DNA of 64,000 nucleotides from contig CM026394.1 of NCBI GenBank assembly GCA_014843695.1, positions 37,464,738-37,528,737 on the forward strand. The letters are read 5' to 3'. Both the position numbers and the translations under genes were made by a program. Source of the stretch: Archivesica marissinica (taxonomy: Eukaryota > Mollusca > Bivalvia > Venerida > Vesicomyidae). This document shows, piece by piece, positions 3,804 to 59,531 of the stretch (position 1 is the stretch's first letter; every line of letters starts with the position of its first letter). The notes under the pieces were generated by a model, which was not told where the DNA came from, did not search any database, and saw nothing but the letters and a program-made list of their open reading frames with translations.

Positions 3804-4102
3804 ACAGACGGATCTGTAGTCCAGTGGTAACACGCTGGACTGGTAATCCAGGGATCGCAGGTTCGATCCCCCGTCTGACCTTAATAAAATTAACAGTCTT
3901 TCAGATGGGACGTTAAACCGAGGTCTCGTGTCGGTGCTTCACACCGTGCACTTAAAAGAACCAGAGGATACTCTGGAATGGGTCTCTGTCTGTATCATTG
4001 CACTATCCTCCAACATCTAAAATGACTAATCTCTTCAGGAGGCGTCGCTCGACGCTCATATGGGCAACCGGTAGCGACGATAAATAAACGTAAAACAAAC
4101 AC
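3804..4102 (+). mobile_element. tRNA-Thr-derived SINE (family A)
   Basis: Full-length copy of about 295 bp. The head folds like tRNA: GATCTGTAGTCCAGTGG, then the anticodon arm CTGGA-CTGGTAA-TCCAG (anticodon GGT, threonine), then the B box GGTTCGATCCC. The body includes CAGATGGGACGTTAAACCGA and TGCACTATCCTCC; the tail is GGGCAACCGGTAGCGACGAT followed by AAATAAACGTAAAACA. It is the commonest dispersed repeat here, with at least eleven copies or fragments. Confidence 0.85.
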
Positions 4103-14906: not shown

Positions 14907-15185
14907 ACAGACGGTCCAGTGGTTAACACGTCGGACTGGTAATCCAGGGATCGCAGGTTCGATCCCCCATCTGACCATAATAAAATTAACAGTCTTTCAG
15001 ATGGGACTTTAAACCGAGGTCTCGTGTCGGTGCTTTACACCGTGCTCGTAAAAGAACCTAAGGTGACTCTGGAATGGGTCTCTGTCTGTATCATTGCACT
15101 ATCCTCCAAAATTCTAAAATGAGTAATATCTTCAGGAGGCGTCACTCATATAGGCAACCGGTAGCGACGATAAATAAACGTAAAT
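14907..15185 (+). mobile_element. SINE family A
   Basis: Near full length; ends at CGATAAATAAACGTAAATC, immediately before the integrase fragment. Confidence 0.8.
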
Positions 15186-15198
15186 CAATTCTAACAAC

Positions 15199-16554
15199 TT
15201 GTTGTCCAACCCGTTTTGTTTCGTTTTCTTTGCTTTGTCACGATTATTTACGAGTTTGTCACGAGGTTTTCCCGAGCGACTTCACAGTGACCAAGGTCGA
15301 AATTTTCTTAGTAGGACTATACAGGAACTGTGTAAGCTCACGGGCATTCGTAAAAGCCGTACAACGCCGTACCACCCTATGGGTAATGGTTCAGCAGAAC
15401 GATTCAACGGCACTCTTCTGCGCATGCTTGGTACCTTAGAGGAACACCAAAAGAGCGACTGGAAATCGTATATCGCCCCTCTTGTTCAGGCATACAATGG
15501 TACCAAGAGTGACGCAACCGGTTTTTCGCCACACTATTTAATGTTTGGGTGGCATCCTCGACTTTCTGTCGATGCCTACTTAGGTACAGATCCACAAGAC
15601 ATTGGTGAATTCACACCTACGACATATGTAGCCAAACTAAAGAACTGGCTAGAATATGCATATAGGGCAGCTGCCAATGAAGCTGGCAGGCAGGCTGCCA
15701 AGAACAAGGACAGGTACGACTGTAAAGTTCGTGAGTCCAAGATAGAAGTTGGAGACCGTGTACTTGTAAAGAAAGTCGGTATCAAGGGGACACATAAGCT
15801 AGCAGACAGATGGGATCGCGACCCTTATGTTGTGCTAGCTATGCCGAACCCCGACATACCAGTATTTCGTGTACAACTTGAGAATGGCAAAGGACCAATC
15901 CGGACGTTGCATAGGAATATGCTCCTGCCATTCAATTGTGTACCCAGAGATACACAGACGGTGGATGTAAGTGTAGAATCTGAGATAGGCCCTATCCGCA
16001 AGGAGTTGGCCAGAACCAATCTCAAGACACCACCAGTACATGTACCTCACGCAATCCAATCTGATAGTTCCGATTTAGATAGCGAAGGCGAAAGCGTCAA
16101 ACTATACAGACCTCCAGCTTTGCGAAAGCATAATCACCCTGGATTGCTGCCTCCGACGATACCTAGGATGGTTCCTGCGACTACTGGTAGTCCAACCCAT
16201 ATTCCTAGCCGTATCGTCGAGAACAATCCAGGAGTGCAACACTCAACCAGATCTAACTCTGTGACATCTCAACCCTCTGTACCCAGCTTACTTGGTACCG
16301 GTAGTACGATACCTGAATCTTCACAGATTCATGATCTATCTTATAACACCACCTCAGAACCATCAGTACAGAGATCTGTCTCACATTTAGAGTCCATAAT
16401 AGACCAACCTGTTGTCGTCCCTGCTGGCAATGCCCAAACTCCTGAACCGACCCGTCGTCCGGTGCGCCAAAGGAAGCCACCGGACCGGTATGGAGAATGG
16501 GTGGTCCCATTGACAGCAGTACCAAACACTGACAAGGTTGTGTACTATGTGTAA
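15199..16554 (+). pseudogene. Ty3/gypsy integrase, C-terminal fragment of pol
   Basis: An open frame of about 450 codons with no natural start; it opens within the integrase core. Visible are HSDQG (second catalytic Asp, about residue 31), HPMGNGSAERFNGTL with the catalytic Glu 35 residues later (DD35E spacing), and the downstream module VGDRVLVKK ... RTLHRNMLLPF typical of gypsy integrases. A long proline- and serine-rich C-terminal extension follows, ending at TAA. The first catalytic Asp, the zinc finger, RT, RNase H and protease are missing, so it is dead. Integrase is the last domain before the 3' LTR, as in conventional Ty3/gypsy and unlike the element at 27628. Confidence 0.9.
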
Positions 16555-25195: not shown

Positions 25196-25538
25196 ATTTG
25201 TCAGACACCTTTTCAGTTGTCAAGGACAACAATTTGTTAGCGTACAACTCTGATATTAGAGCAACACATGGGGTCGTAGTTGTCATTGTGTACCCATATT
25301 GAACTCCTATGCAACTAGACTAAGTGAAAACAAATTTGTTTCGCTGTAAAATAAATCAAGTTTAAACTTTAAACTCTGTGGTAAGAATCAACGCATTAGT
25401 CGGAGCACAACTATATTATCATAGGGAAGCCCCGGGAGCAACTACATGTAGCTAACCCGATCACAACTCCAACTTGGGAAAATGCAACTTGGTCATAGTA
25501 CGGTATATTAGTCATGCGAGTACGAGCTGACAGCTTAG

Positions 25539-25732
25539 TTTATACAAATTTATTTTAGCTCGATTGCGAAACAAGTTCTTATAACTTATATTGATCACTC
25601 TCGAGACCTGAGGCAACGTGGAATTTAAATGCCTTGCCTAAGGGCACACTTGTAACGGCTCCAACGGGGCTCGAACTCCAGGCCGTTCGCACCTGAAGCG
25701 AACACGCTACCATTGCACTATCACGACTTCCA
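25539..25732 (-). mobile_element. tRNA-derived SINE (family D)
   Basis: Minus-strand copy: the head has GTGATAGTGCAATGG-like and GAGTTCGAGCCCC boxes, and the tail is AAGAACTTGTTTCGCAATCG. Related copies lie at 37185 (partial), 48302, 50497 and 56407. A loose tail piece lies at 25328-25374. Confidence 0.75.
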
Positions 25733-25926: not shown

Positions 25927-27627
25927 ATACTCGTTCAACGGCGGTGTTCCCTTGCATAGACTCCGGGACTGTATGTAGTCACACTCCGGTAGTGTAGTCT
26001 TATCAGGGACCACATTAATGATAAACTCATTCAACAAAGCAGCGGTGTTCCCTTGCATAGACTCGGGGACTTTATGTAGTCACACTCCGGTAGTGTAGTC
26101 TTATCAGGGACCACATTAATGATAAACTAATTCAACAAAACGGCGGTGTTCCCTTGCATAGACTCGGGGACTTTATGTAGTCACACTCCGGTAGTGTAGT
26201 CTTATCAGGGACCACATTAATGATAAACTCATTCAACAAAGCAGCGGTGTTCCCTTGCATAGACTCGGGGACTTTATGTAGTCACACTCCGGTAGTGTAG
26301 TCTTATCAGGGACCACATTAATGATAAACTAATTCAACAAAACGGCGGTGTTCCCTTGCATAGACTCGGGGACTTTATGTAGTCACACTCCGGTAGTGTA
26401 GTCTTATCAGGGACCACATTAATGATAAACTCATTCAACAAAGCAGCGGTGTTCCCTTGCATAGACTCGGGGACTTTATGTAGTCACACTCCGGTAGTGT
26501 AGTCTTATCAGGGACCACATTAATGATAAACTCATTCAACAAAACGGCGGTGTTCCCTTGCATAGACTCGGGGACTTTATGTAGTCACACTCCGGTAGTG
26601 TAGTCTTATCAGGGGCCACATTAATGATAAACTCATTCAACAAAGCGGCGGTGTTCCCTTGCATAGACTCGGGGACTTTATGTAGTCACACTCCGGTAGT
26701 GTAGTCTTATCAGGGACCACATTAATGATAAACTCATTCAACAAAACGGCGGTGTTCCCTTGCATAGACTCGGGGACTTTATGTAGTCACACTCCGGTAG
26801 TGTAGTCTTATCAGGGACCACATTAATGATAAACTCATTCAACAAAACGGCGGTGTTCCCTTGCATAGACTCGGCGGGGACTTTATGTAGTCACACTCCG
26901 GTAGTGTAGTCTTATCAGGGACCACATTAATGATAAACTCATTCAACAAAGCAGCGGTGTTCCCTTGCATAGACTCGGGGACTTTATGTAGTCACCACTC
27001 CGGTAGTGTAGTCTTATCAGGGACCACATTAATGATAAACTCATTCAACAAAACGGCGGTGTTCCCTTGCATAGACTCGGGGACTTTATGTAGTCACACT
27101 CCGGTAGTGTAGTCTTATCAGGGACCACATTAATGATAAACTCATTCAACAAAATGGCGGTGTTCTCTTGCATAGACTCGGGGACTTTATGTAGTCACAC
27201 TCCGGTAGTGTAGTCTTATCAGGGACCACATTAATGATAAACTCATTCAACAAAACGGCGGTGTTCCCTTGCATAGACTCGGGGACTTTATGTAGTCACA
27301 CTCCGGTAGTGTAGTCTTATCAGGGACCACATTAATGATAAACTCATTCAACAAAACGGCGGTGTTCCCTTGCATAGACTCGGGGACTTTATGTAGTCAC
27401 ACTCCGGTAGTGTAGTCTTATCAGGGGCCACATTAATGATAAACTCATTCAACAAAGCGGCGGTGTTCCCTTGCATAGACTCGGGGACTTTATGTAGTCA
27501 CACTCCGGTAGTGTAGTCTTATCAGGGACCACATTAATGATAAACTCATTCAACAAAACGGCGGTGTTCCCTTGCATAGACTCGGGGACTTTATGTAGTC
27601 ACACTCCGGTAGTGTAGTCTTATCAGG
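25927..27627 (+). repeat. 101-bp satellite, left array
   Basis: About 17 very uniform units containing GGCGGTGTTCCCTTGCATAG, GGGACTTTATGTAGTCACAC and AGGGACCACATTAATGATAA. It stops at TCTTATCAGG, where the LTR element begins, and resumes at 34694. Confidence 0.97.
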
Positions 27628-28600
27628 TGTGCAAAACCACCATTATTTGCACGAAATGTTTATTATTGTTATATATAAATAGTAATGTATTATATAAATA
27701 CATTAAACTGTTTCTATATATGGCCAAGTGTTTACCATGTAATATATATATATTTGTTTTATGCATAATCGTCTGCTATTATTTTCGCGCCAAAAAATTA
27801 TCAGTCTCGCTTCGCGCGGGAAATGACTTAAGATTTTAGGCCTAATCTCAGTTTATCAAGGCCGTGGTTGCAGGTGTCCAGTTATGTAATATAAAGGCGA
27901 CGAACTGGTTTGATGGTGTAATATTAGATAACATAACAGATGTTTTAGGAATAACAGATGTTTTAGGAATTGTTATATCATATAGACATTGATTCAATCG
28001 TGTATATAAGAAATGGATTTTATTAACTAAAATCAGAACACTTAGGCCTACCTCCAGGAGAGAGTGTGGCGTGATCTCATTCTATAGAACATAGAAACTG
28101 TTTCTATGATACTTAGATATTATGGACATTATAAGAATTATAACTTATAAAGATTTGTCGAATAATTAAATAAAATCGTTCAGCCATAGAAGAAACAGAG
28201 AGTTTCGGCGAACCATATCGAAGGTGATTAAAAGTTAATAAATCAGAAACATTGATTAGATTATAGTGATATTGAGTAATGACGGATTAGAGAAACTGGA
28301 GTTAATTATATTGTGTAGCGCATAGTCGGCTCACACAAATTGGATTGTTAAATAAGCGTTTAATGATACGATGTATATATATATAAATCACTGATTATAT
28401 ATATCAGAATATCTCTGATGCCAATTTAAACAAGATATTATATAGAAGAAATGTAAGACTGTGTTGAGTTATTATTAATACATATATTGAAGAAGAAACC
28501 CCCTAGACAACTCCAGCGAGTCTACAATAGGATAGACCCTGGTAAGAGCCGTAGCAACTGAGATATATAAATACGAGAAGAAAAAGGAGAGTTTGCGACA
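27628..28600 (+). repeat. 5' LTR
   Basis: 973 bp from TGTGCAAAACC to GTTTGCGACA (TG...CA). Its right end is fixed by the adjoining primer binding site and by the LTR of the second copy (41823-42851), which ends identically. Confidence 0.93.
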
Positions 28601-28602
28601 AT

Positions 28603-28620
28603 TGGGGGCTCGTCCGGGAT
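28603..28620 (+). other. primer binding site, tRNA-Pro type
   Basis: TGGGGGCTCGTCCGGGAT, two bases after the LTR. This is the 18-nt sequence complementary to the 3' end of tRNA-Pro, the same primer site known from murine leukaemia-type retroviruses. Confidence 0.92.
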
Positions 28621-29190
28621 TGGACATACAATACAATACAAAACATTTTATTGCATGAGATAATAAAATACAATAAAGAAGAAATGACATATCGTGACAT
28701 ATTGTGAAGGACACTAGAATTTATATATGGAATATTGTGAAGGACACTAGGATTTATACATGAAGAATACAAGGGACTATTAATTAACGTGTGAAAATAG
28801 AAGTGCATGCGAAACAGTGTTAGAATTTGTAAATAAGTGAAAGACGTCAACGAATTATTAAATTAGTGAAATGGATTAAATTATTGGAAATGTGCAAACT
28901 TTGAATATGTGATAAATTATATATTGGATTAACGGACGAGACAGACTTCGGTAAGTACCAGTTTTATTTTCATAGAGGCTTAATATTATCATTAAAATTA
29001 TATTAGTGATTTACTTCCTTTTATTGAACTCAATTCTATAATACATTTGGAGATACATTCTGGGGATTAAAAATTTTGGGAAATAAAAAAATAAAATGGC
29101 TACAACTAGGAGTGCTAATAAGGAAACTGAGGGGCCGGGCCGGTTCACCCCGACTTGCAGACAACAGGTGATGAGATATGGGACAAATTA

Positions 29191-32100
29191 ATGAGACTTC
29201 CCTTCTTTAATCAGGCAAATCTGGAACGTCAGGGTGAGATTTATGAGAAAGAAAGAGAGAGGGAAAGAGAAGAAAGAGAGAGAGAAAGAGAAGAGAAAGA
29301 AAGGGACAGGGAGGAAAGAATGCAAAGGGAGAAAATGCAGATGGAGATTCGCCTGAGAGAAATCCAGAGAGATCAGAAATCTCAGCAAAATAACGCCCTC
29401 CATACAGATAATAGGCCCTCTAAGACAAACATTTCTGTTCCTATTTGGACCCAGACTATGAGGCCAGATAAATTCTTCGCAACATGTGAGAGACTGTTCG
29501 AAGCTAGCCAGGTCGCCAAACAAACATGGGTGGGCCATATTATAGACAAGTTGTCCGACACGGCCAGAAATATATATGCCACTCTTCCTGTCCAAGACGC
29601 TAATAATTACGATACCCTCAAGGCCGCCATCTTGGATGAATATAGACTCTCACCCACTGTATATAGAAAGAATTTCTTCTCTTGGGTAAAGAAACCTCAG
29701 CAGACATATTCCGAATTCATTAAGGAATTAAGGGAGCAAATGACTCTATGGACGGAGAACAATGATCCGAGCGAGGTCAACTGGATCGAGCTGCTCTTGA
29801 GATATAGGTTCGATTCCCAGCTAAGTGATGAGCTTAATTTGTTCATTCTGTATAAGAAAGCATCTACTCTCCAGGAATGTATTTCCCTGGCTGATGAATA
29901 TAACCTCCATCGCAGATTAGCGCCCAGGACACGGATTAATTCAAATCCGAATGTGAAACCCAGAGATACAGAACACCGACCTCCAGCCCCAAGGCCATAT
30001 ATCCCATCACCCATGTATCGACCCAGTATGAGGATAGATAATTCCCAAGCTACCCATAGAACTCCCCGGATAGAAAAATATTGTAGTTATTGTAGGCGTA
30101 ATGGCCACGGACGAATAGAGTGTTGGGCAGATCCCAATTCACCTAGGTACAGGGGTACTAGAAACCTAGCAAACGGACACCACGTGTCAAACACTACTCA
30201 TAGTTCAGCCTTTGTAACCAATGAGCCAGTGAACTCATGTGAAAATACCGAGATGGTAAATCCATTACTTGCCAAATATACAGGTCAAGCACGCATAAAT
30301 ACTAACACCGCACAAGTGACGTATTTGAGAGATACAGGTGCGACAATCAGTTTATTGTCGGCTACTGATCAAACCGCTGATCATTTAGAATACACAGGTG
30401 AACGGGTAACAATCCGCGGTGTCAATTATATCCCTGGTAATTACCCGATAGCAAAGATTAGCGTTGATTGTCCAATCTACCAAGGAACATTGAAGGTGGC
30501 TGTATTAAAGCACAGATGCACCGCGGGGGTGGATCTTATAATAGGTAACGACTGTGAAACTGCCCCTGTCGCTGATTTGATTACCTGTGGCGTGGTTACA
30601 CGCTCCAATAAGAAAATTATCCCGTTTGATGAAACTGTCACGTCCAACCCAGACTCAGAAAACACGACCGATACAAATCACAATGTCTTACCTTTTCGGA
30701 ATACAATTGAGATCAATTCCCCCTCTGAGAAAGCCAGTGCAGTTAAACCCCAAAATATTCCCTCTATTGACGATTTGAGTCCTGATAAATTATTGCAAGA
30801 ACAGAATAATGACCCGACCTTAGCACCCCTCTGGGAAATGGCTCAAGAAGGAACACCTATTCGGCAAGGATATTACATCCAGCTCGAACCCCGACTACTT
30901 ATGAGGAGAGAACAACCTCAAGACACGTCCAAAGTTCGACCCTGGAAAATATATGATCAGGTGGTAGTTCCACGGGGATTCCGGGATCATATAACGGGAC
31001 TCGCCCATGACAGTTTAAGTACGGGACACCAGGGACCTAGTAAGACCCTGAAGCGCATTAAGCGCCGCTTCTTTTGGCCGGGAATCCGCGCAGATGTTAA
31101 ACGATTCTGCCATAGCTGTGGGCCGTGCCAGAGAGCGGGTAAGGGACAGAAAGCCACTGTAGCCCCATTGAAACCCCTGCCCATTATATCCCAACCATTC
31201 AGATTTATATCCGCTGATTTCGTTGGACCCATGAAGAAAACTATTAATGGGAACCAGTATATCTTGAATTGTATTGATCATGCCACTAAATATACGGAAT
31301 CTTTCCCATGCGCCGCAGCGACTGCTGTTAATGCACTAAAAGCCCTGATCGAGATAATATCTCGACATGGAAAACCCCAGACCCTGTTGACTGACCGAGG
31401 AAGCGCTTTCATAGCTGAAACATTCACACGCTTCCTAGCCGAGCACGATATACGTCACTTAACTAGCACGAGTTACACGCCTCAAACCAACGGATCAATA
31501 GAGAAATATAATGGTACATTGAAAACCATGCTTAGAATCCTTGGGGAGAACTCTTTATCACCTTGGGATGAGATGCTACCCTGGCTATTATTTGCATATA
31601 GAAGTGCAGAGCACTCTAGCACAGGAGATTCTCCCTTCTACCTTCTATATGGGCGCGAACCTAGAGATAATCTAGATTCCACTTATGATCTCTGGGCTAG
31701 AAATGAGCGGGATGAAGGGATCCCCATAAATAACTATGTACAAGAATTATGTCATAGATTAGCTGAAGCGTTACGTGACGCCAGCGAGAATGCACAACAG
31801 GCCGCAGATGGTCGTAAAACAAAGTATGACAGAAGTACGAAAGCGAAAATGCGTGTATTCCAGCGTGGTGAATTAGTGTTAGTACGATTACCGTTAAAAG
31901 GTAATAAGCTGAAAAATGCCCTCCAGGGACCGTATCCGGTACACGAAAAGGTAGCGTCGCATACCTATATTATATACATGCCTGATAAGAGAGTAAAATA
32001 CCGTGTTATGCATGTAAACCAGTTGAAGCCCTGGACAGGTAGGGAGGAGGGTGCAGCTCTAGCTGATAGTAGTCCGGTGTATGAGTCCCAAGACCCTACC

Positions 32101-33597
32101 CTATTAGATTACCAAGCCCCTACGGACATTGAGAAAGAATTCGATCATTGCAGTCCTCTTGAATCTGTACCTAAGAAAACCTGGCCGGATATCAGTCATT
32201 TAAACCCAGACCACAGGGACGATATTAGTCAGTTATTTGACCGTTACCCCCGTCTATTCTCTGGACAACTGGGACGTTTCCACGGTGTTACCCATGATAT
32301 TGATGTGCAAGGTGCTTCACCCGTAGTCCAGCCTTACTACCGCATGTCTCCAGAAAAGAAACAAATATTAAAAACTGAGCTAGATCAAATGTTGGAGTTA
32401 GGAATTATCCGCCCTAGCAGAAGCCAGTGGGCCTCTCCCATAATATTGGTACGCAAATCAGACTCGGAATGGCGACCATGTATTGATTATCGGAAAATTA
32501 ATGATCTGACTCGAGGAGAAGCCTTCCCCATCCCGAGATTAGACGATCTCATTGATCAGGTCGCAGGTTCGAGTCTGATATCAATTTTAGATCTTAATAA
32601 AGGATATTGGCAGATTCCGCTAACCCCTCGAGCTAGTGAAATTGTAGCGTTCATAAACCCCTGGGGCTTGTTTGAACCATTAACTCTCCCATTTGGTTTA
32701 AAAAACGGTGGAGTTACCTTCCAGAGGGCCATAAACGAGATAATCGCTCAATCCCAGACAGAACCCATCCGCGATAGATTTGCCGACGCATATCTGGATG
32801 ATATTGCTGTTCGATCCAATTTATGGTCACAGCACATAAATCACTTGGATTGGACATTTCATAGACTAGAGGATAGTGGTGTTACTTTGAATCCGAAGAA
32901 GTGTAAAATTGGGTCTGGAACAGTCAAGTACTTGGGACATGAATTAGGTTCGGGAAAAATCAAACCAATTTCCAGCAAGGTTGAGTGTATTAGTAATATC
33001 TCTCCCCCACAGACCAAGAAACAATTACGAGGATATCTGGGATCAGTAGGATTTTACAGGAAATTCATTCCCAAGTTCGCTGAGATCGCCGCTCCCCTGA
33101 CTGACTTATTAAAGGGCAAGCGATCAGGGAACATCATAACTCAGTGGAGCGATAAACATCAACTTGCTTTCGAATCCTTAAAGAAAGCTTTAACCAATAA
33201 AACCATACTGAAGGCCCCTGACTTTAACCAAGAGTTCGAACTCTATACTGATGCTTCCGATTTGGGAATTTCGGCTGTACTGACTCAGACCGTTGACCAA
33301 GTACCAAACCCAGTAGCATTTTATTCCCGAAAACTTATTCCACGAGAGAAAAACTACTCTACAATAGAGAAGGAATTATTAGCTATAGTGGCCGGTATCG
33401 AACATTTTCGCATATATGTAAGCACAAGCAAAACACTCATCAATTCAGATCATAATCCCCTTGTATGGTTAAGTAGGTCGAAAACGTCCAATCAACGCCT
33501 CTTAAGATGGGCACTGTGTCTCTCAGAATTTAATTTGACCATTAAACATATCAAAGGGACTCAAAATGTTCTAGCAGACTTTCTCAGTAGAGTTTAA
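29191..33597 (+). CDS. gag-pol polyprotein, order gag-PR-IN-RT-RNaseH
   Basis: 1468 codons from the first in-frame ATG, uninterrupted. Gag: charged coiled coil (about residues 19-62), a gag region with WVGHIIDKLSD, and zinc knuckle C298-x2-C-x4-H-x4-C311. Protease: DTGAT (D381). Integrase: H606, H613, C643, C646 finger; core D676, D735, E771 (DD35E). A linker carries RVMHVNQLKPW. RT: LDLNKGYW (D1134) and YLDD (1201-1204). RNase H: YTDAS (D1354), a Glu near 1393-1395, and D1420. All catalytic residues are present. Integrase before RT is reversed from ordinary Ty3/gypsy. Start: an ATG at 29096 lies in another frame and stops after 32 codons, and the main frame has a stop at 29128, so this copy may carry a small N-terminal frame break; nothing proves the ATG at 29191 is used. 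Confidence 0.93.
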   Translation: MRLPFFNQANLERQGEIYEKEREREREEREREREEKERDREERMQREKMQMEIRLREIQRDQKSQQNNALHTDNRPSKTNISVPIWTQTMRPDKFFATCERLFEASQVAKQTWVGHIIDKLSDTARNIYATLPVQDANNYDTLKAAILDEYRLSPTVYRKNFFSWVKKPQQTYSEFIKELREQMTLWTENNDPSEVNWIELLLRYRFDSQLSDELNLFILYKKASTLQECISLADEYNLHRRLAPRTRINSNPNVKPRDTEHRPPAPRPYIPSPMYRPSMRIDNSQATHRTPRIEKYCSYCRRNGHGRIECWADPNSPRYRGTRNLANGHHVSNTTHSSAFVTNEPVNSCENTEMVNPLLAKYTGQARINTNTAQVTYLRDTGATISLLSATDQTADHLEYTGERVTIRGVNYIPGNYPIAKISVDCPIYQGTLKVAVLKHRCTAGVDLIIGNDCETAPVADLITCGVVTRSNKKIIPFDETVTSNPDSENTTDTNHNVLPFRNTIEINSPSEKASAVKPQNIPSIDDLSPDKLLQEQNNDPTLAPLWEMAQEGTPIRQGYYIQLEPRLLMRREQPQDTSKVRPWKIYDQVVVPRGFRDHITGLAHDSLSTGHQGPSKTLKRIKRRFFWPGIRADVKRFCHSCGPCQRAGKGQKATVAPLKPLPIISQPFRFISADFVGPMKKTINGNQYILNCIDHATKYTESFPCAAATAVNALKALIEIISRHGKPQTLLTDRGSAFIAETFTRFLAEHDIRHLTSTSYTPQTNGSIEKYNGTLKTMLRILGENSLSPWDEMLPWLLFAYRSAEHSSTGDSPFYLLYGREPRDNLDSTYDLWARNERDEGIPINNYVQELCHRLAEALRDASENAQQAADGRKTKYDRSTKAKMRVFQRGELVLVRLPLKGNKLKNALQGPYPVHEKVASHTYIIYMPDKRVKYRVMHVNQLKPWTGREEGAALADSSPVYESQDPTLLDYQAPTDIEKEFDHCSPLESVPKKTWPDISHLNPDHRDDISQLFDRYPRLFSGQLGRFHGVTHDIDVQGASPVVQPYYRMSPEKKQILKTELDQMLELGIIRPSRSQWASPIILVRKSDSEWRPCIDYRKINDLTRGEAFPIPRLDDLIDQVAGSSLISILDLNKGYWQIPLTPRASEIVAFINPWGLFEPLTLPFGLKNGGVTFQRAINEIIAQSQTEPIRDRFADAYLDDIAVRSNLWSQHINHLDWTFHRLEDSGVTLNPKKCKIGSGTVKYLGHELGSGKIKPISSKVECISNISPPQTKKQLRGYLGSVGFYRKFIPKFAEIAAPLTDLLKGKRSGNIITQWSDKHQLAFESLKKALTNKTILKAPDFNQEFELYTDASDLGISAVLTQTVDQVPNPVAFYSRKLIPREKNYSTIEKELLAIVAGIEHFRIYVSTSKTLINSDHNPLVWLSRSKTSNQRLLRWALCLSEFNLTIKHIKGTQNVLADFLSRV

Positions 33598-33811
33598 TGA
33601 TTGTGATGTTTGACTTAGTAAATGTACTTGGTATTATTTCAGTTGTTCAGTAAATAGTTATTGCCTCTATGATTAGAATGTTGGTACCTAGCGAAAGAAA
33701 TGCTATTTTAGGACATATGATGTATTGATATTATGATTGTTTTCTACTGTATATTCAAAGGAATGAAGATTTGTAAATCGGCCGATAGCGGGCGATGTCA
33801 AACTTCTCCCC

Positions 33812-33824
33812 GGGTAGGGAGGAT
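33812..33824 (+). other. polypurine tract
   Basis: GGGTAGGGAGGAT directly before the 3' LTR; it is conserved in the second copy at about 42852-42864. Confidence 0.7.
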
Positions 33825-34693
33825 TGTGCAAAACCACAATTATTTGCACGAAATGTTTATTATTGTTATATATAAATAGTAATGTATTATATAAATACAT
33901 TAAACTGTTTCTATATTTGGCCAAGTGTTTACCATGTAATATATATATATTTGTTTTATGCATACTCGTCTGCTATTATTTTCGCGCCTAAAATTATCAG
34001 TCTCGCTTCGCGCGGGAAATGATTTAAGATTTTAGGCCTAATCTCAGTTTATCGAGGCCGTGGTTGCAGGTGTCCAGTTATGTAATATAAAGGCGACGAA
34101 CTGGTTTGATGGTGTAATATTAGATAACATAACAGATGTTTTAGGAATAACAGATGTTTTAGGAATTGTTATATCATATAGACACTGATTCAATCGTGTA
34201 TATAAGAAATGGATTTTAGTAACTAAAATCAGAACACTAAAGCCTACCTCCAGGAGAGAGTGTGGAGTGATCTCATTATATAGAACATAGAAACTGTTCT
34301 ATGATACTTAGATATTATGGACATTTAAGAATTATAACTTATAAAGATTTGTCGAATAATTAAATAAAATCGTTCAGCCATAGAAGAAACAGAGAGTTTC
34401 GGCGAACCATATCGAAGGTGATTAAAAGTTAATAAATCAGAAACCTTGATTATATTATAGTGATATTGAGTAATGACGGATTAGAGATACTGGAGTTTAA
34501 TTATATTGTGTAGCGCATAGTCGGCTCACACAAATTGGATTGTTAAATAAGCGTTTAATGATACGATGTATATATATATAAATCACTGATTATATATATC
34601 AGAATATCTCTGATGCCAATTTAAACAAGATATTATATAGAAGAAATGTAAGACTGTGTTGAGTTATTATTAATACATATATTGAAGAAGAAA
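33825..34693 (+). repeat. 3' LTR, truncated
   Basis: Aligns with the 5' LTR from TGTGCAAAACC to GAAGAAGAAA, then breaks into satellite; the last 102 bp of the LTR are missing. An element with this end could not regenerate normal ends without recombination. Confidence 0.92.
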
Positions 34694-35612
34694 GGGACCA
34701 CATTAATGATAAACTCATTCAACAAAACGGCGGTGTTCCCTTGCATAGACTCGGCGGGGACTTTATGTAGTCACACTCCGGCAGTGTAGTCTTATCAGGG
34801 ACCACATTAATGATAAACTCATTCAACAAAATGGCGGTGTTCCCTTGCATAGACTCGGGGACTTTATGTAGTCACACTCCGGTAGTGTAGTCTTATCAGG
34901 GACCACATTAATGATAAACTCATTCAACAAAACGGCGGTGTTCCCTTGCATAGACTCGGGGACTTTATGTAGTCACACTCCGGTAGTGTAGTCTTATCAG
35001 GGACCACATTAATGATAAATCATTCAACAAAACGGCGGTGTTCCCTGCATAGACTCGGGGACTTTATGTAGTCACACTCGGTAGTGTAGTCTTATCAGGG
35101 ACCACATTAATGATAAAATCATTCACAAAGCGGCGGTGCCCATGCATAGACTCGGGACTTTATGTAGTCACACTCCGGTAGTGTAGTCTTATCAGGGACC
35201 ACATAATGATAAACTCATCAACACAACGGCGGTGTTCCCTTGCATAGACTCGGGGACTTTATGTAGTCACACTCCGGTAGTGTAGTCTTATCAGGGACCA
35301 CATTAATGATAAACTCATTCAACAAAACGGTGGTGTTCCCTTGCATAGACTCGGGGACTTTATGTAGTCACACTCCGGTAGTGTAGTCTTATCAGGGACC
35401 ACATTAATGATAAACTCTTTCAACAAAACAGCGGTGTTCCCTTGCATAGACTCGGGGACTTTATGTAGTCACACTCCGGTAGTGTAGTCTTATCAGGGAC
35501 CACATTAATGATAAACTCATTCAACAAAGCAGCGGTGTTCCCTTCCATAGACTCGGGGACTTTATGTAGTCGCACTCCGGTAGTGTAGTCTTATCAGGGA
35601 CCACATTAATGT
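34694..35612 (+). repeat. 101-bp satellite, right array
   Basis: About nine units, same monomer and phase as 25927-27627. Units at about 35010-35230 carry many single-base losses, unlike the rest. Confidence 0.95.
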
Positions 35613-36915: not shown

Positions 36916-37184
36916 TTAACAAGATCAACGGCACTAACAGTAGTCCGGAAATAAACCACCTGAAAGACACGATGTGTCATCAGCACAGTATGGATTGGCG
37001 ATTGGAATTATAGCTTCTGTACCCGAGACAGTATTGTGTCATTACTCGTGGACGTCACAGAAACCTATCGGCTATTAACATTCTCCCAAATGTCACTAGT
37101 ATGCTGTTGTGCGAGATAGAATCAATCATCAGATATCTCATCTACAAATTCAATAATCAGAAAATAAAATTACCACATATATTA
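36916..37184. other. no gene seen
   Basis: Nothing was recognised between the LINE relic and the SINE fragments. Confidence 0.3.
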
Positions 37185-37312
37185 GTTTATACACATTTGG
37201 TTTAGCTCGATTGCGAAACAAGTTCTTACAACTTATATTAATCACTCTCGAGACCTCATTCCTGATGGAATCCATCGTCACGAGGGAGAGAGAAGAGGCA
37301 ACATAAATTAGG
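37185..37312 (-). mobile_element. SINE family D tail fragment
   Basis: GCGAAACAAGTTCTTACAAC and CTCGAGACCTCATTCCTGAT match the 3' half of family D; the head is missing. Confidence 0.7.
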
Positions 37313-37412
37313 TAATTATGAAATTGAAAGATGGCGACATAACTGTATGCAAAGGCAAGACATATTGAGCATTCCAGCTAGCTAGATACTAAATTAAGTG
37401 AAATGTATAGTT

Positions 37413-37662
37413 AGTTTAAACTTTATTTATTTACAACGATTGCGAAACAAGCTTTAATAGCTTATATTAATCACTCTCGTTGGCGCGGATGAAAGCGTAA
37501 ATGTGGTCATTCGTGTGCAGAGGAAACCGGAGTACCCGGATAAAACCCACCTGTCCGATCGGGCGACAATCGTACCATCTCAATACTTCCCGTCCGAGGA
37601 TCGAACCTGGGTTGAATTGGTGAGAAGCGAACGCGCTAACCACTGCGCTAATCTGACAGCCT
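37413..37662 (-). mobile_element. SINE family C
   Basis: Full-length minus-strand copy: tail at the left (AAACTTTATTTATTTACAAC), head at the right with the A-box complement (CCACTGCGCTAATC). Confidence 0.78.
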
Positions 37663-41822: not shown

Positions 41823-42851
41823 TGTCGCAAACTCTCCTTTTTCTTCTCTTAATAATATGTCTCGGTTGCTACGGCTCTTACCAGGGTCTATCCTAGTGTA
41901 GACTCGCTGGAGTTGTCTATGGGGTTTCTTCGTTATTATATGTATTACTGATAACTCAACACAGTATTACATTTCTTCTATATAATATCTTGTTTAAATT
42001 GGCATCAGAAATATCCATATATATATAATCAGTGATCTATATATATATACATCGTATCATTAAAAGCTTATTTAACAATCCATTTGTGTGAGCCGACTAT
42101 GCGCTTACACAGTATATTTAACATCCAATCTTTCTAATCCGTCATTACTCAATATCACTATAATCTAATCACTGTTTCTGATTAGATTAACTTTTAATCA
42201 CCTTCGATATGGTTCGCCGAAACTCTATGTTTCTTCTATGGCTGAACAATTTAATTATTCGACAAATCTTTATAAGTTATATTTCTTATAATGTCCATAA
42301 TATCTAAGTATCATAAATACAGTTTATATGTTCTATATACTAGATTGAGATCACGACCTTTCTCGCTCCTGGAGTTAGGCTCTAGTGTGTCTGATTTATG
42401 TTAATAAAATCCATTTCTTATATACATAATTGAATCAGTGTATATATGATATAACAATTCCTAAACATCTGTTATGTTATCTAATATTACACCATCAAAC
42501 CAGTTCGGTGCCTTTGTATTACATAACTGGACACCTGCAACCACGGCCTTGTTATCTAATATTACACCATCAAACCAGTTCGGTGCCTTTGTATTACATA
42601 ACTGGACACCTGCAACCACGGCCTTGATAAACTGAGATTAGGCCTAACATCTTAAGTCATTTCCCGCGCGAAGCGAGATTGATAATTTTAGGCGCGAAAA
42701 TAATAGCAGACGATTATGCATAATACAAATATATATATATTACATGGTAAACATTTGGCCATATATAGAAACAGTTTAATGTATTTATATAATACATTAC
42801 TATTTATATATAACAATAATAAACATTTCGTGCAAATTGGGGTTTTGCACA
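41823..42851 (-). repeat. 3' LTR of the second Gmr1-like copy
   Basis: Reads on the minus strand from TGTGCAAAACC to GTTTGCGACA, complete at both ends. It contains a tandem duplication of about 73 bp (about 42478-42625, TAATATTACACCATCAAACC twice), which explains most of its extra length over the 973-bp LTR. Confidence 0.9.
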
Positions 42852-43075
42852 ATCCTCCCTACCCGGGGAGAAGTTTGACATCGCCCGCTATCGGCCGATT
42901 TACAAATCTTCATTCCTTTGAATATACAGTAGAAAACAATCATAATATCAATACATCATATGTCCTAAAATAGCATTTCTTTCGCTAGGTACCAACATTC
43001 TAATCATAGAGGCAATAACTATTTACTGAACAACTGAAATAATACCAAGTACATTTACTAAGTCAAACATCACAG

Positions 43076-46000
43076 TCATTGAACTCTACTGAGAAAGTCT
43101 GCTAGAACATTTTGAGTCCCTTTGATATGTTTAATGGTCAGATTAAATTCTGAGAGACACAGTGCCCATCTTAAGAGGCGTTGATTGGACGTTTTCGACC
43201 TACTTAACCATACAAGGGGATTATGATCTGAATTAATTATTGTTTTGCTTGTGCTTACATATATGCGAAAATGTTCGATACCGGCCACTATAGCTAATAA
43301 TTCCTTCTCTATTGTAGAGTAGTTTTTCTCTCGTGGAATAAGTTTTCGGGAATAAAATGCTACTGGGTGTGGTACTTGGTCAACGGTCTGAGTCAGTACA
43401 GCCGAAATTCCCAAATCGGAAGCATCAGTATAGAGTTCGAACTCTTGGTTAAAGTCAGGGGCCTTCAGTATGGGTTTATTGGTTAAAGCTTTCTTTAAGG
43501 ATTCGAAAGCAAGTTGATGTTTATCGCTCCACTGAGTTATGATGTTCCCTGATCGCTTGCCCTTTAATAAGTCAGTCAGGGGAGCGGCGATCTCAGCGAA
43601 CTGGGGAATGAATTTCCTGTAAAATCCTACTGATCCCAGATATCCTCGTAATTGTTTCTTGGTCTGTGGGGGAGAGATATTACTAATACACTCAACCTTG
43701 CTGGAAATTGGTTTGATTTTTCCCGACCCTAATTCATGTCCCAAGTACTTGACTGTTCCAGACCCAATTTTACACTTCTTCGGATTCAAAGTAACACCAC
43801 TATCCTCTAGTCTATGAAATGTCCAATCCAAGTGATTTATGTGCTGTGACCATAAATTGGATCGAACAGCAATATCATCCAGATATGCGTCGGCAAATCT
43901 ATCACGGATGGGTTCTGTCGGGGATTGAGCGATTATCTCGTTTATGGCCCTCTGGAAGGTAACTCCACCGTTTTTTAAACCAAATGGGAGAGTTAATGGT
44001 TCAAACAAGCCCCAGGGGGTTATGAACGCTGCAATTTCACTAGCTCGAGGGGTTAGCGGAATCTGCCAGTAACCTTTATTAAGATCTAAAATTGATATCA
44101 GACTCGAACCTGCGACCTGATCAATGAGATCGTCTAATCTCGGGATGGGGAAGGCTTCTCCTCGAGTCAGGTCATTAATTTTCCGATAATCAATACATGG
44201 TCGCCATTCTGAGTCTGATTTGCGTACCAATATTATGGGAGAGGCCCACTGGCTTCTGCTAGGGCGGATAATTCCTAACTCCAACATTTGATCTAGCTCA
44301 GTTTTTAATATTTGTTTCTTTTCTGGAGACATGCGGTAGTAAGGCTGGACTACGGGTGAAGCACCTTGCACATCAATATCATGGGTAACATCGTGGAAAC
44401 GTCCCAGTTGTCCAGAGAATAAACGGGGGTAACGGTCAAATAACTGACTAATATCGTCCCTGTGGTCTGGGTTTAAATGACTGATATCCGGCCAGGTTTT
44501 CTTAGGTACAGATTCAAGAGGACTGCAAGGATCGAATTCTTTCTCAATGTCCGTAGGGGCTTGGTAATCTAATAGGGTAGGGTCTTGGGACTCATACACC
44601 GGACTACTATCAGCTAGAGCTGCACCCTCCTCCCTACCTGTCCAGGGCTTCAACTGGTTTACATGCATAACACGGTATTTTACTCTCTTATCAGGCATGT
44701 ATATAATATAGGTATGCGACGCTACCTTTTCGTGTACCGGATACGGTCCCTGGAGGGCATTTTTCAGCTTATTACCTTTTAACGGTAATCGTACTAACAC
44801 TAATTCACCACGCTGGAATACACGCATTTTCGCTTTCTTACTTCTGTCATACTTTGTTTTACGACCATCTGCGGCCTGTTGTGCATTCTCGCTGGCGTCA
44901 CGTAACGCTTCAGCTAATCTATGACATAATTCTTGTACATAGTTATTTATGGGGATCCCTTCATCCCGCTCATTTCTAGCCCAGAGATCATAAGTGGAAT
45001 CTAGATTATCTCTAGGTTCGCGCCCATATAGAAGGTAGAAGGGAGAATATCCTGTGCTAGAGTGCTCTGCACTTCTATATGCAAATAATAGCCAGGGTAG
45101 CATCTCATCCCAAGACGATAAAGAGTTCTCCCCAAGGATTCTAAGCATGGTTTTCAATGTACCATTATATTTCTCTATTGATCCGTTGGTTTGAGGCCTG
45201 TAACTCGTGCTAGTTAAGTGACGTATATCGTGCTCGGCTAGGAAGCGTGTGAATGTTTCAGCTATGAAAGCGCTTCCTCGGTCAGTCAACAGGGTCTGGG
45301 GTTTTCCATGTCGAGATATTATCTCGATCAGGGCTTTTTGTGCATTAACAGCTGTCGCTGCGGCGCATGGGAAAGATTCCGTATATTTAGTGGCATGATC
45401 AATAAAATTCAAGATATACTGGTTCCCATTTATAGTTTTCTTCATGGGTCCAACGAAATCAGCGGATATAAATTTGAATGGTTGGGATATAATGGGCAGG
45501 GGTTTCAATGGGGCTACAGTGGCTTTCTGTCCCTTACCCGCTCTCTGGCACGGCCCACAGCTATGGCAGAATCGTTTAACATCTGCGCGGATTCCCGGCC
45601 AAAAGAAGCGGCGCTTAATGCGCTTCAGGGTCTTACTAGGTCCCTGGTGTCCCGTACTTAAACTGTCATGGGCGAGTCCCGTTATATGATCACGGAATCC
45701 CCGTGGAACTACCACCTGATCATATATTTTCCAGGGTCGAACTTTGGACGTGTCTTGAGGTTGTTCTCTCCTCATAAGTAGTCGGGGTTCGAGCTGGATG
45801 TAATATCCTTGCCGAATAGGTGTTCCTTCTTGAGCCATTTCCCAGAGGGGTGCTAAGGTCGGGTCATTATTCTGTTCTTGCAATAATTTATCAGGACTCA
45901 AATCGTCAATAGAGGGAATATTTTGGGGTTTAACTGTACTGGCTTTCTCAGAGGGGGAATTGATCTCAATTGTATTCCGAAAAGGTAAGACATTGTGATT

Positions 46001-46383
46001 TGTATCGGTCGTGTTTTCTGAGTCTGGGTTGGACGTGACAATTTCATCAAACGGGATAATTTTCTTATTTGAGCGTGTAACCACGCCACAGGTAATCAAA
46101 TCAGTGACAGGGGCAGTTTCACAGTCGTTACCTATTATAAGATCCACCCCCGCGGTGCATCTGTGTTTTAATACAGCCACCTTCAATGTTCCTTGGTATA
46201 TTGGACAATCGACGCTAATCTTTGCTATCGGATAATTACCAGGGATATAATTGACACCGCGGATTGTTACCCGTTCACCTGTGTATTCTAAATGATCAGC
46301 GGTCTGATCAGTAGCCGACAATAAACTAATTGTCGCACCTGAATCTCTCAAATACGTCACTTGTGCGGTGTTATTATTTATGC
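43076..46383 (-). CDS. gag-pol of the second Gmr1-like copy, 3' part
   Basis: About 1102 codons continuous from the assembly gap to TGA at 43076, nearly identical in protein to residues about 368 onward of the first copy. Protease reads DSGAT instead of DTGAT, both acceptable active-site forms. The integrase finger and DD35E core, RT YLDD and RNase H box are all intact, in the same PR-IN-RT-RH order. Gag, the 5' leader and the 5' LTR fall in or beyond the gap. That two copies carry the same order and remain open argues against an assembly join of two elements. Confidence 0.93.
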
Positions 46384-47383
46384 NNNNNNNNNNNNNNNNN
46401 NNNNNNNNNNNNNNNNNNNNNNNNNNNNNNNNNNNNNNNNNNNNNNNNNNNNNNNNNNNNNNNNNNNNNNNNNNNNNNNNNNNNNNNNNNNNNNNNNNNN
46501 NNNNNNNNNNNNNNNNNNNNNNNNNNNNNNNNNNNNNNNNNNNNNNNNNNNNNNNNNNNNNNNNNNNNNNNNNNNNNNNNNNNNNNNNNNNNNNNNNNNN
46601 NNNNNNNNNNNNNNNNNNNNNNNNNNNNNNNNNNNNNNNNNNNNNNNNNNNNNNNNNNNNNNNNNNNNNNNNNNNNNNNNNNNNNNNNNNNNNNNNNNNN
46701 NNNNNNNNNNNNNNNNNNNNNNNNNNNNNNNNNNNNNNNNNNNNNNNNNNNNNNNNNNNNNNNNNNNNNNNNNNNNNNNNNNNNNNNNNNNNNNNNNNNN
46801 NNNNNNNNNNNNNNNNNNNNNNNNNNNNNNNNNNNNNNNNNNNNNNNNNNNNNNNNNNNNNNNNNNNNNNNNNNNNNNNNNNNNNNNNNNNNNNNNNNNN
46901 NNNNNNNNNNNNNNNNNNNNNNNNNNNNNNNNNNNNNNNNNNNNNNNNNNNNNNNNNNNNNNNNNNNNNNNNNNNNNNNNNNNNNNNNNNNNNNNNNNNN
47001 NNNNNNNNNNNNNNNNNNNNNNNNNNNNNNNNNNNNNNNNNNNNNNNNNNNNNNNNNNNNNNNNNNNNNNNNNNNNNNNNNNNNNNNNNNNNNNNNNNNN
47101 NNNNNNNNNNNNNNNNNNNNNNNNNNNNNNNNNNNNNNNNNNNNNNNNNNNNNNNNNNNNNNNNNNNNNNNNNNNNNNNNNNNNNNNNNNNNNNNNNNNN
47201 NNNNNNNNNNNNNNNNNNNNNNNNNNNNNNNNNNNNNNNNNNNNNNNNNNNNNNNNNNNNNNNNNNNNNNNNNNNNNNNNNNNNNNNNNNNNNNNNNNNN
47301 NNNNNNNNNNNNNNNNNNNNNNNNNNNNNNNNNNNNNNNNNNNNNNNNNNNNNNNNNNNNNNNNNNNNNNNNNNNNNNNNNNN
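46384..47383. other. assembly gap, 1000 N
   Basis: Exactly 1000 N. The part of the element missing here should be about 2.66 kb if complete, so the size is a placeholder or the element is truncated. Confidence 0.99.
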
Positions 47384-48055: not shown

Positions 48056-48301
48056 CACGGCATACAAATGTATGTTTTTGTATGGTTTTATTTCTGTGTT
48101 TATTATTGTGATTTGGTTTAAACATATGTATTCAATCATTCATTCATACGGGGGAGGTGTTGTATCTGGTCACTGCAAGTCAAGCTTTTCTTAATCTGTC
48201 AAAAGGTTGATCGGTTTTTATGTATTTCATTTATTCATACTTCCAAAAGAATATGTTCTCATATATAGTACCACATAAACCAATCTCAGTTCAATCAATG
48301 T

Positions 48302-48533
48302 GGAAGTCGTGATAGCGCAGTGGATGTGCGTTCGCTTCAAGTGCGAAAGGTTCGGAGTTCGAGCCCCACTGGAGCTGTTACGAATGTGCCCTTAGGCAAG
48401 GCATTTCAATTCCACGTTGCCTCTTCTCTCTCCCTCGTGGCAATGGATTCCATCAGGAATGAGGTCTCGAGAGAGATTAATATAAGTTGAAAGAACTTGT
48501 TTCGCAATCGAGTTAAAATAAATTTGTATAAAC
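48302..48533 (+). mobile_element. SINE family D, full length
   Basis: Head GTGATAGCGCAGTGGATGTG and GGAGTTCGAGCCCC; tail AAGAACTTGTTTCGCAATCG and TAAAATAAATTTGTATAAAC. Confidence 0.8.
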
Positions 48534-48577
48534 CAATCTCAGATTATTTCAAGGTTTCCGTATACTACATCACGATG

Positions 48578-58067: not shown

Positions 58068-59531
58068 TACTGAAATACTTTAGAAACGCACCACTGATAT
58101 ATACACCCTAATAGTATGCACGGTAGTGTGAGATTTGATCATTGTGATACATCAGAATAAATTGCAAGTATCTCTTAACATTTTATTTGTATTCACAACA
58201 AAATCGACCCTTCGTGGACTTAATAAGAGCCAGTCAAAGAAAGGCAGTGTTCGGAATTAGCGCTTTCTAATCTCAGTAGCGGTTATGGCCCCCATTATTT
58301 GCGATTACAGCCTGTAGACGTCGTCGCATCTACCTCACTAAGCGTTGTATGGTTGGCATAGGGACGTTCTGCCATTCCTGTTGCAGTGCTAACCAAAGTT
58401 CGGGGACGTTTTGCGGTTGCTGTGGACGTCGTCGAAGTCTCCGTCCGAGCTTATCCCACATGTGCTCGATGCAGTTCATGTCGGGAGACATAACAGACCA
58501 CTCGAGAACGTCGATTCCCTGGTTCATTAAGTAAGTTTGGGTGAGACGGGCACTGTGAGCGCGTGCACTGTCCTGTTGGAACGTCAACTGACGGTTGTTG
58601 CCGTTACGTTGAAGCAATGGAACGAGCACAGGGGCAAGCACTTCATTAACGTAACGCTGTGCAGTCAAATTACCTTGAATCAGAACAAGGTCCGAACGAA
58701 AGTTATGATTAATGGCGCCCCAAACCATTATACTGCCTCCCCCGAACCTATCACGCTCTACAACACAAACATCACGGTAACGTCGGTACATGCGAATTCT
58801 ACCATCTGCAAAACTTAGGGAAAATCGTGATTCATCGGAAAAAACAACTTGATTCCAGTTCTGGCGTCGATTATTGATCATATCACGGGCCCAGCGCACT
58901 CGATTCTGTCGGTGACGTTGAGTTAAGATCTGTCCCCTGTACGGTCGTCTGCAATGGATTCCATAATATCTCAATCGTCGTATCACTGTCCTTACATGGA
59001 TATTCCTACGGCGACGTCCTTGTATCAAATTTGCCGTGGAAACTGCTGTTGTGAAACGATCTCGGAGATGACGCTGACGTATGTAATTGTATTGACGTCT
59101 GGTAGTAACACGAGGTTGACCGGTTCTCGGACGATCAGCGACACTACTCGTAGCCACGAAACGCTGATGAAGGCGAGAAATTGTCGACTGGTGGACACGA
59201 AAACGCCTATCATACTCCCTTTGGTTACGCAAATCGTGTCTATGTCTTGGCATTCTTTACTTAATAAAAGGGGAACAAACAATTCATATGGTAAAAGTGT
59301 GTGTATATATGGCTGTCTAAAATAACAATTTAAGCACACCCAGAGACATTGACTGCCGTTATGTAACATCAACACCGTGTCGGATACCAGAAAAACCGAT
59401 TGCACGAAATTGTGTTGGCAATGACTAATAATTGTTTAAAATGTTACCTAACAGGGGGCATTTCTTAATACTGACTCTTTGAAGGAAAATATTTGAAGAA
59501 ATAAGTGATGCGTTTCTAAAATCTTTCAGTA
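58068..59531 (-). mobile_element. Tc1-type DNA transposon
   Basis: About 1464 bp flanked by TA, with imperfect inverted ends TACTGAAATACTTTAGAAAC and TACTGAAAGATTTTAGAAAC, and one transposase frame on the minus strand. Confidence 0.88.
58330..59253 (-). CDS. Tc1-family transposase (DD34E)
   Basis: 307 codons. The C-terminal two thirds is the catalytic DDE domain: VVFSDESRFSL (first Asp), QQDSARAH (second Asp) and SPDMNCIEHMWDKL (Glu 34 residues after the second Asp). The motif GGGSIMVWGAI lies between. The N-terminal DNA-binding part has the second helix-turn-helix region (VHQSTISRL, then RPRTGQPR), but the first helix looks deleted: only about 15 residues precede it, against the usual 30 or more, and a stop sits just upstream of the ATG. 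Length is short of the usual ~340. Probably inactive or weak in DNA binding, although the catalytic residues are intact. Confidence 0.9.
   Translation of the reverse strand: MPRHRHDLRNQREYDRRFRVHQSTISRLHQRFVATSSVADRPRTGQPRVTTRRQYNYIRQRHLRDRFTTAVSTANLIQGRRRRNIHVRTVIRRLRYYGIHCRRPYRGQILTQRHRQNRVRWARDMINNRRQNWNQVVFSDESRFSLSFADGRIRMYRRYRDVCVVERDRFGGGSIMVWGAINHNFRSDLVLIQGNLTAQRYVNEVLAPVLVPLLQRNGNNRQLTFQQDSARAHSARLTQTYLMNQGIDVLEWSVMSPDMNCIEHMWDKLGRRLRRRPQQPQNVPELWLALQQEWQNVPMPTIQRLVR

What the first reader, a model, noticed from the sequence alone, without database searches (positions are those of the whole stretch)
29191..33597. Gypsy-type retrotransposon with integrase placed before reverse transcriptase
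Seen: one open frame has zinc knuckle, DTGAT protease, HHCC finger and DD35E integrase, then gypsy-style RT (YLDD) and RNase H. Known: ordinary Ty3/gypsy has integrase last, Ty1/copia has it before RT, and Gmr1-type elements, first described in Atlantic cod, combine gypsy RT with copia order. Inference: this is a Gmr1-clade element in what looks like a mollusc, and young, since the frame is open and the LTRs are similar.
Basis: partly seen in the sequence, partly recalled or inferred. Interest (0 to 1): 0.75.

Follow-up and report, generated by a model that had tools for sequence, protein, structure and literature searches.

The report
Gmr1-type gypsy retrotransposon, integrase first
The window holds a self-copying genomic element (an LTR retrotransposon) whose enzymes sit in the rare order integrase before reverse transcriptase; that order is the known hallmark of the animal Gmr1 group, so this is a new member of a described kind, not a new kind.

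Summary
A 7.07-kb LTR retrotransposon (27628-34693) sits in a 101-bp satellite array. One open frame encodes Gag, CCHC knuckle, DTGA protease, HHCC/DD35E integrase with GPY, gypsy-type RT (YLDD) and RNase H, in that order. An opposite-strand copy (42852-46383) is 98.75% identical and gap-free over 3532 bp, so the order is no assembly join.

Of the 120 best homologues listed, 116 share the order. RT+RNase H, integrase and joint trees each put integrase-first elements on one side of a branch (99, 96, 100/100) and place both halves of this element together. It lies within the Gmr1-like radiation, in a well-supported sublineage of unnamed database proteins with its own Gag N-terminus.

'Mollusc' could not be tested. 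The order is in print for cod, tunicate, frog, pufferfish, crustacean and annelid; the mollusc survey I read lists no Gmr1 clade. New member of a known kind.

The parts
27628..28498 (+). 5' LTR (starts TG)
   Evidence: 97.8% identical to the 3' LTR, 872 aligned columns
28499..29095 (+). 5' leader; primer-binding site not identified (no TGG next to the LTR)
   Evidence: sequence read; stops in all three frames
29096..29098 (+). likely Gag start codon, in a different frame from the main one
   Evidence: leader length like that of P0001; no in-frame ATG between 29131 and 29191 although homology reaches there
29131..33597 (+). stop-to-stop Gag-Pol frame (first in-frame ATG 29191; stop 33595-33597)
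29659..29913 (+). SCAN-like capsid region (weak)
   Evidence: PF02023 18.2 bits, cut-off 27, residues 157-241; family profile's best PDB match is a SCAN domain, 3lhr, E 0.088
30082..30123 (+). CCHC zinc knuckle
   Evidence: motif; conserved in alignment A1
30331..30342 (+). aspartic protease motif DTGA
   Evidence: motif; conserved in alignment A1; no Pfam hit
30967..31137 (+). integrase HHCC finger
   Evidence: PF17921 68.1 bits, residues 593-649
31192..31482 (+). integrase core (Pfam span); catalytic D, D, E codons begin at 31216, 31393 and 31501
   Evidence: PF00665 50.3 bits, residues 668-764; DD35E spacing
31927..31941 (+). GPY module of the integrase C-terminus
   Evidence: motif; Ty3 integrase aligns through it
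32449..32946 (+). reverse transcriptase, YLDD at 32791
   Evidence: PF00078 95.4 bits, residues 1087-1252; motif
33145..33531 (+). RNase H
   Evidence: PF17919 and PF17917, residues 1319-1447
33812..33824 (+). polypurine tract next to the 3' LTR
   Evidence: sequence read
33825..34693 (+). 3' LTR
25937..27627 (.). 101-bp satellite array, left of the insertion
   Evidence: Tandem Repeats Finder, 16.7 copies
34693..35611 (.). 101-bp satellite array, right of the insertion, in phase with the left part apart from 2-3 duplicated bases
42852..46383 (-). copy 2, internal region, cut by a 1000-base N gap (46384-47383)
   Evidence: 98.75% identity over 3532 bp, 44 mismatches, no gap; gap seen
41823..42851 (-). 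composite LTR after copy 2 (96% part, then 88% part), followed by 121 bp of leader

Best explanation
This is an LTR retrotransposon of the Ty3/gypsy family, inside the Gmr1-like group, whose defining trait is integrase upstream of reverse transcriptase. Inferred from the family, not shown here: the LTR drives one RNA; a single Gag-Pol polyprotein is made and cut by its own aspartic protease; RT and RNase H copy the RNA into DNA inside a particle; the DD35E integrase joins the DNA to the host genome. With all domains in one frame, the changed order should alter the cutting of the precursor and not the ratio of the enzymes (inference). Shown here: the anatomy, the order, two copies, homologues with the same order and the tree placement. 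This copy inserted into a 101-bp satellite and is probably frameshifted near the Gag start, so it may no longer act on its own.
For: Domain order by Pfam and motifs. LTRs, polypurine tract and short duplicated flank in the satellite. Copy 2 collinear over 3532 bp, with dN/dS 0.31 between the copies. The same order in 116 of the 120 listed homologues, among them sea urchin, sea star, frog, fish, shrimp, acorn worm and sponge records. All integrase-first rows on one side of a branch: RT+RH 99, integrase 96, joint 100/100. Holding the other 30 integrase-first rows together is rejected, AU p 0.008, p 0.016 with four more rows.
Against: No sequence of cod Gmr1 was in hand; the clade is represented by fish, frog and other integrase-first elements. 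Outgroups are 11 representatives from one pseudoscorpion plus yeast Ty3, so an ordinary-order clade nearer to Gmr1 could be missing. In the integrase tree alone the other 30 rows do group together, with support 47. The SCAN match is below its cut-off in the query. The LTR has no CA end, no TGG primer site lies next to it, and the target duplication is only 2-3 bp.
Confidence: 0.92

Rival explanations
1. A recent chimera: a gypsy RT joined to the integrase of another retroelement.
For: The order is that of Ty1/copia elements (PMC2582038, passage).
Against: The integrase is gypsy-type with GPY, and Ty3 integrase aligns to it along 366 residues. RT and integrase place the query with the same 13 proteins at 100.
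Confidence: 0.03
2. The order is an assembly join.
For: The window has an N gap and repeats, and copy 2 lies next to the gap.
Against: Both copies span the integrase-RT junction without a gap, and 116 of 120 listed homologues share the order.
Confidence: 0.01
3. A separate lineage that gained the integrase-first order independently of Gmr1.
For: The sublineage has a different Gag N-terminus, and the outgroup sample is narrow.
Against: Integrase-first rows are one side of a branch at 100/100, with the sublineage nested among them.
Confidence: 0.05
4. About the start only: translation begins at ATG 29191, and the copy is intact.
For: It is the first ATG in the open frame.
Against: Residues encoded just upstream in the same frame align with relatives, that stretch has no ATG, and an ATG in another frame at 29096 gives a leader of about the length seen in P0001.
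Confidence: 0.2

Closest known systems
Gmr1 of Atlantic cod (PMC2582038 and PMC6238403, passages; Goodwin and Poulter 2002 as cited there, not read)
   Same: Gypsy-type element with the order PR-IN-RT-RH.
   Different: Sequence of Gmr1 itself not compared; the query is 37-41% identical to most listed Gmr1-like proteins outside its own sublineage.
Gmr elements of pufferfishes (PMC11117352, passages)
   Same: Gag and Pol in one frame, 1506-1634 aa there, 1468 aa or more here; no env.
   Different: LTRs 337-518 bp and 6.1-6.5 kb in all there; about 870 bp and 7.07 kb here.
Crustacean GyRex4, Gychoro2, GyMaja1 and GyLiva4 (PMC3587641, passages) and annelid LGF3 (PMC8220671, passages)
   Same: Gmr1-clade elements in protostomes.
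   Different: Their sequences were not compared; Penaeus vannamei P0082 falls among the other Gmr1-like rows, not in the query's sublineage.
Ty3 of yeast (PDB 7q5b)
   Same: RT/RNase H and integrase align end to end.
   Different: In Ty3 RT/RNase H (584-1008) precedes integrase (1086-1449); here the order is reversed.
Ty1/copia elements
   Same: Integrase before RT.
   Different: RT, RNase H and integrase here are gypsy-type by Pfam, by the PDB matches and by the trees.

Membership tests
Gmr1 clade of Ty3/gypsy | Integrase upstream of RT in pol | tested here: met
   both copies
Gmr1 clade of Ty3/gypsy | RT/RNase H and integrase both of gypsy type | tested here: met
   Pfam, Ty3 best PDB match, trees
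Gmr1 clade of Ty3/gypsy | Groups with Gmr1-like elements in RT and in integrase trees | tested here: met
   cod Gmr1 itself not available, outgroups narrow
Gmr1 clade of Ty3/gypsy | SCAN-like Gag capsid (reported for many but not all Gmr elements, PMC4131045 and PMC4592553, passages) | tested here: inconclusive
   query 18.2 bits against cut-off 27; 4 of 11 members at E 0.05; P0007 29.3 bits; best PDB match SCAN, E 0.088
Complete LTR retrotransposon | Paired LTRs, polypurine tract, target-site duplication | tested here: met
   the duplication is only 2-3 bp
Complete LTR retrotransposon | tRNA primer-binding site next to the 5' LTR | tested here: inconclusive
   no TGG in the first 40 bases after the LTR; read by eye
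Ty1/copia | Copia-type RT and integrase | tested here: not met
Element of a mollusc genome | Host identity | not testable with these tools
   no named close relatives; genome tool unanswered

The most novel reading that the evidence does not exclude
The query and the 13 unnamed proteins are an undescribed sublineage of Gmr1 elements, perhaps of molluscs or other lophotrochozoans, that replaced the usual Gag N-terminus while keeping the integrase-first pol. If the host is a mollusc, Gmr1 is present in a phylum whose survey of 989 gypsy elements lists no Gmr1 clade.
Probability: 0.4. Interest if true: 0.4.

Novelty: new member of a known kind. Interest (0 to 1): 0.25.

Why it matters
The element fits a single rearrangement of the gypsy pol gene that then spread widely in animals, and it marks a distinct sublineage of that group with its own Gag N-terminus. 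If the host proves to be a mollusc, it fills a gap in the reported range of Gmr1. It does not change what is known of how such elements work.

Tried and rejected
Chimera of two retroelements: rejected, RT and integrase trees agree. Assembly join: rejected, the second copy and database proteins share the order. Sublineage as sister to all the other integrase-first rows: the tree that holds those together is rejected (AU p 0.008; 0.016 with four more rows). A scan of viral contigs with six peptide patterns found nothing. Naming the host through the window's Tc1-like transposase failed (120 of 358 hits listed, the close ones unnamed). A paper search for the source of P0087 found nothing. The LTR differences (4 transitions, 11 transversions, counted from the list) looked odd but do not differ significantly from the body (22 and 22; Fisher p 0.14).

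Rows dropped or limited; 436 proteins passed the threshold, the best 120 are listed; 115 integrase-first proteins were kept; P0018 (split RT) and four Cordylochernes proteins were set aside, the latter as ordinary order; the 13 sublineage proteins and 30 of the other 102 were used; a list limit in my script cut two representatives, P0113 and P0118, which were added back with P0095 and P0087 with the same outcome. Of 105 ordinary-order pieces 11 representatives were used, all from Cordylochernes, plus Ty3; the query and 10 of the 13 sublineage proteins (P0004, P0006 and P0011 left out); 9 of 13 sublineage and 73 of 102 other proteins count as full length; the motifs were chosen after reading the sequences; a simple pattern for the others' N-terminus fits only 29 of 73, and the profile, built from those 29, matches 56 of 73; a first guess at a shared N-terminal motif fitted only 5 of 115 and was dropped; one codon with two differences was counted as two non-synonymous changes.
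Full report
What is there. An LTR retrotransposon spans 27628-34693. Its LTRs (27628-28498 and 33825-34693) agree in 853 of 872 aligned columns, with 15 mismatches and 4 gaps. It sits inside a 101-bp satellite array (25937-27627 and 34693-35611). The array continues in phase across the insertion with only 2-3 duplicated bases, GG or AGG. A polypurine tract (33812-33824) abuts the 3' LTR.

The coding frame. From ATG 29191 to 33597 there is one frame of 1468 aa without a stop. It encodes, in order, a Gag with a CCHC knuckle, a DTGA protease, an HHCC finger, a DD35E integrase with a GPY end, a YLDD reverse transcriptase and RNase H. Ty3 aligns with both halves, but in the opposite order: RT/RNase H at Ty3 residues 584-1008 and integrase at 1086-1449.

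A correction to the start. The frame is open back to 29131, and residues encoded upstream of ATG 29191 align with relatives. No ATG lies in that stretch. A plausible start, ATG 29096, is in a different frame. The likely reading is a frameshift near the Gag N-terminus of this copy, or a sequence error there. Copy 2 cannot tell, because its 5' part is a 1000-base N gap.

A second copy. On the minus strand, 46383-42852 matches the internal region at 98.75% over 3532 bp, 44 mismatches and no gap. There are 20 synonymous and 22 non-synonymous changes in 1100 codons, dN/dS 0.31, binomial p 0.0003, and no stop in copy 2. The excess of synonymous change suggests that the lineages between the copies were working elements (inference). 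The LTR after copy 2 is composite: a 306-bp part at 96%, then a part at 88% that repeats about 77 bp of it, then 121 bp of leader at 91.7%. That may be recombination, a nested insertion or an assembly effect; I did not resolve it.

Relatives. The search listed the best 120 of 436 proteins. Of these 120, 116 have the order IN-RT-RH, and the other four are Cordylochernes gene models with two ordinary-order elements in tandem. Named integrase-first members come from sea urchins, a sea star, frogs, fish, a shrimp, an acorn worm and a sponge (names; what kind of animal each is, recalled). P0095 is filed under the bacterium Candidatus Thiodiazotropha endolucinida and P0087 under a Campylobacter. Both are integrase-first and are most likely animal DNA in those assemblies (inference). 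Papers that name that bacterium treat symbionts of lucinid clams (search listing), an indirect hint of Gmr1-like elements in a bivalve. Neither protein falls in the query's sublineage.

Trees. With 57 rows, integrase-first elements are one side of a branch in the RT+RNase H tree (99) and in the integrase tree (96) (SH-aLRT, short searches), and at 100/100 in the joint tree. The query, copy 2 and P0001-P0013 form a sublineage at 100 in each. Holding the other 30 integrase-first rows together is rejected (AU p 0.008); with four more rows p is 0.016. So the query lies within the Gmr1-like radiation. Against this, in the integrase tree alone the other 30 rows do form one group, with support of only 47. 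The ordinary-order rows come from one pseudoscorpion and yeast Ty3, and the integrase-first rows were found with an integrase-first query, so the claim of one origin is limited to this sample.

What sets the sublineage apart. An LPFF-type motif near the Gag start is in 9 of 9 full-length sublineage proteins and in 0 of 73 other full-length integrase-first proteins. A profile of the others' N-termini matches 56 of the 73 and none of the 9 or the query (motifs chosen after inspection, profile built from 29 of the 73). A SCAN-like capsid, reported for Gmr1-like elements (PMC4592553 and PMC4131045, passages), is weak: 18.2 bits in the query against a cut-off of 27, 4 of 11 members at E 0.05, P0007 above the cut-off, and the best PDB match of the family profile a SCAN domain at E 0.088.

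What is known. The order of Gmr1 is described in PMC2582038 and PMC6238403 (passages). Gmr1-like elements are reported from crustaceans as the first in protostomes (PMC3587641, passages), from an annelid, whose paper also names cod and a tunicate (PMC8220671, passages), from frogs (PMC4131045, passages) and from pufferfishes (PMC11117352, passages). A second annelid study did not find that Gmr1 clade itself (PMC8556966, passages). The mollusc survey (PMC6238403, passages and section 6) used 989 mollusc gypsy sequences and lists C-clade, AB-clade, CsRN1, Cigr-1, Tor2 and 16 MolGy clades, and no Gmr1 clade. Whether Gmr1 was among its reference rows I did not see. Searches that paired Gmr1 with mollusc words brought up no title or passage that reports Gmr1 in a mollusc; I read passages of the retrotransposon papers only, and most subscription papers are not held. 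A MolGy clade could be this sublineage under another name; that was not testable here.

Verdict. A new member of a known kind, in a distinct sublineage. The host is not established, and the youth of this copy is only partly supported.

Noticed in passing
28480-28560 and 34680-34700: The LTR begins TG but ends ...GAAGAAGAA(A) without CA, and no TGG primer site follows it; the first TGG lies about 40 bases on. The primer is unexplained.
   Followed up: partly
27628-28498 against 33825-34693: The LTRs differ by 4 gaps and 15 substitutions (11 transversions) while the internal regions of the two copies differ by no gap in 3532 bp; the LTR divergence may overstate the age or include sequence errors.
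   Followed up: partly
41823-42851: Composite LTR after copy 2 (96% part joined to an 88% part with about 77 bp repeated), followed by leader sequence of a more divergent copy.
   Followed up: partly
15184-16554: Stop-to-stop frame that reads by eye like the integrase end of a second, ordinary gypsy element; not run through Pfam.
   Followed up: no
58330-59256 (minus): Tc1-like transposase frame; best database match 83% identical, unnamed.
   Followed up: partly
25535-25624, 37182-37271, 37411-37500 and about 48300-48540: Dispersed repeat with a conserved tail, at 48310 preceded by a tRNA-like stretch (read by eye): looks like a tRNA-derived SINE. Rfam tRNA matches at 3810, 6901 and 62226 may be of the same kind.
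   Followed up: no
P0095 and P0087: Integrase-first gypsy proteins filed under bacterial names, one a lucinid clam symbiont; probably animal DNA in bacterial assemblies.
   Followed up: partly
P0014, P0015, P0019, P0029 and P0121-P0237: Cordylochernes scorpioides gene models made of several tandem retrotransposon polyproteins.
   Followed up: no
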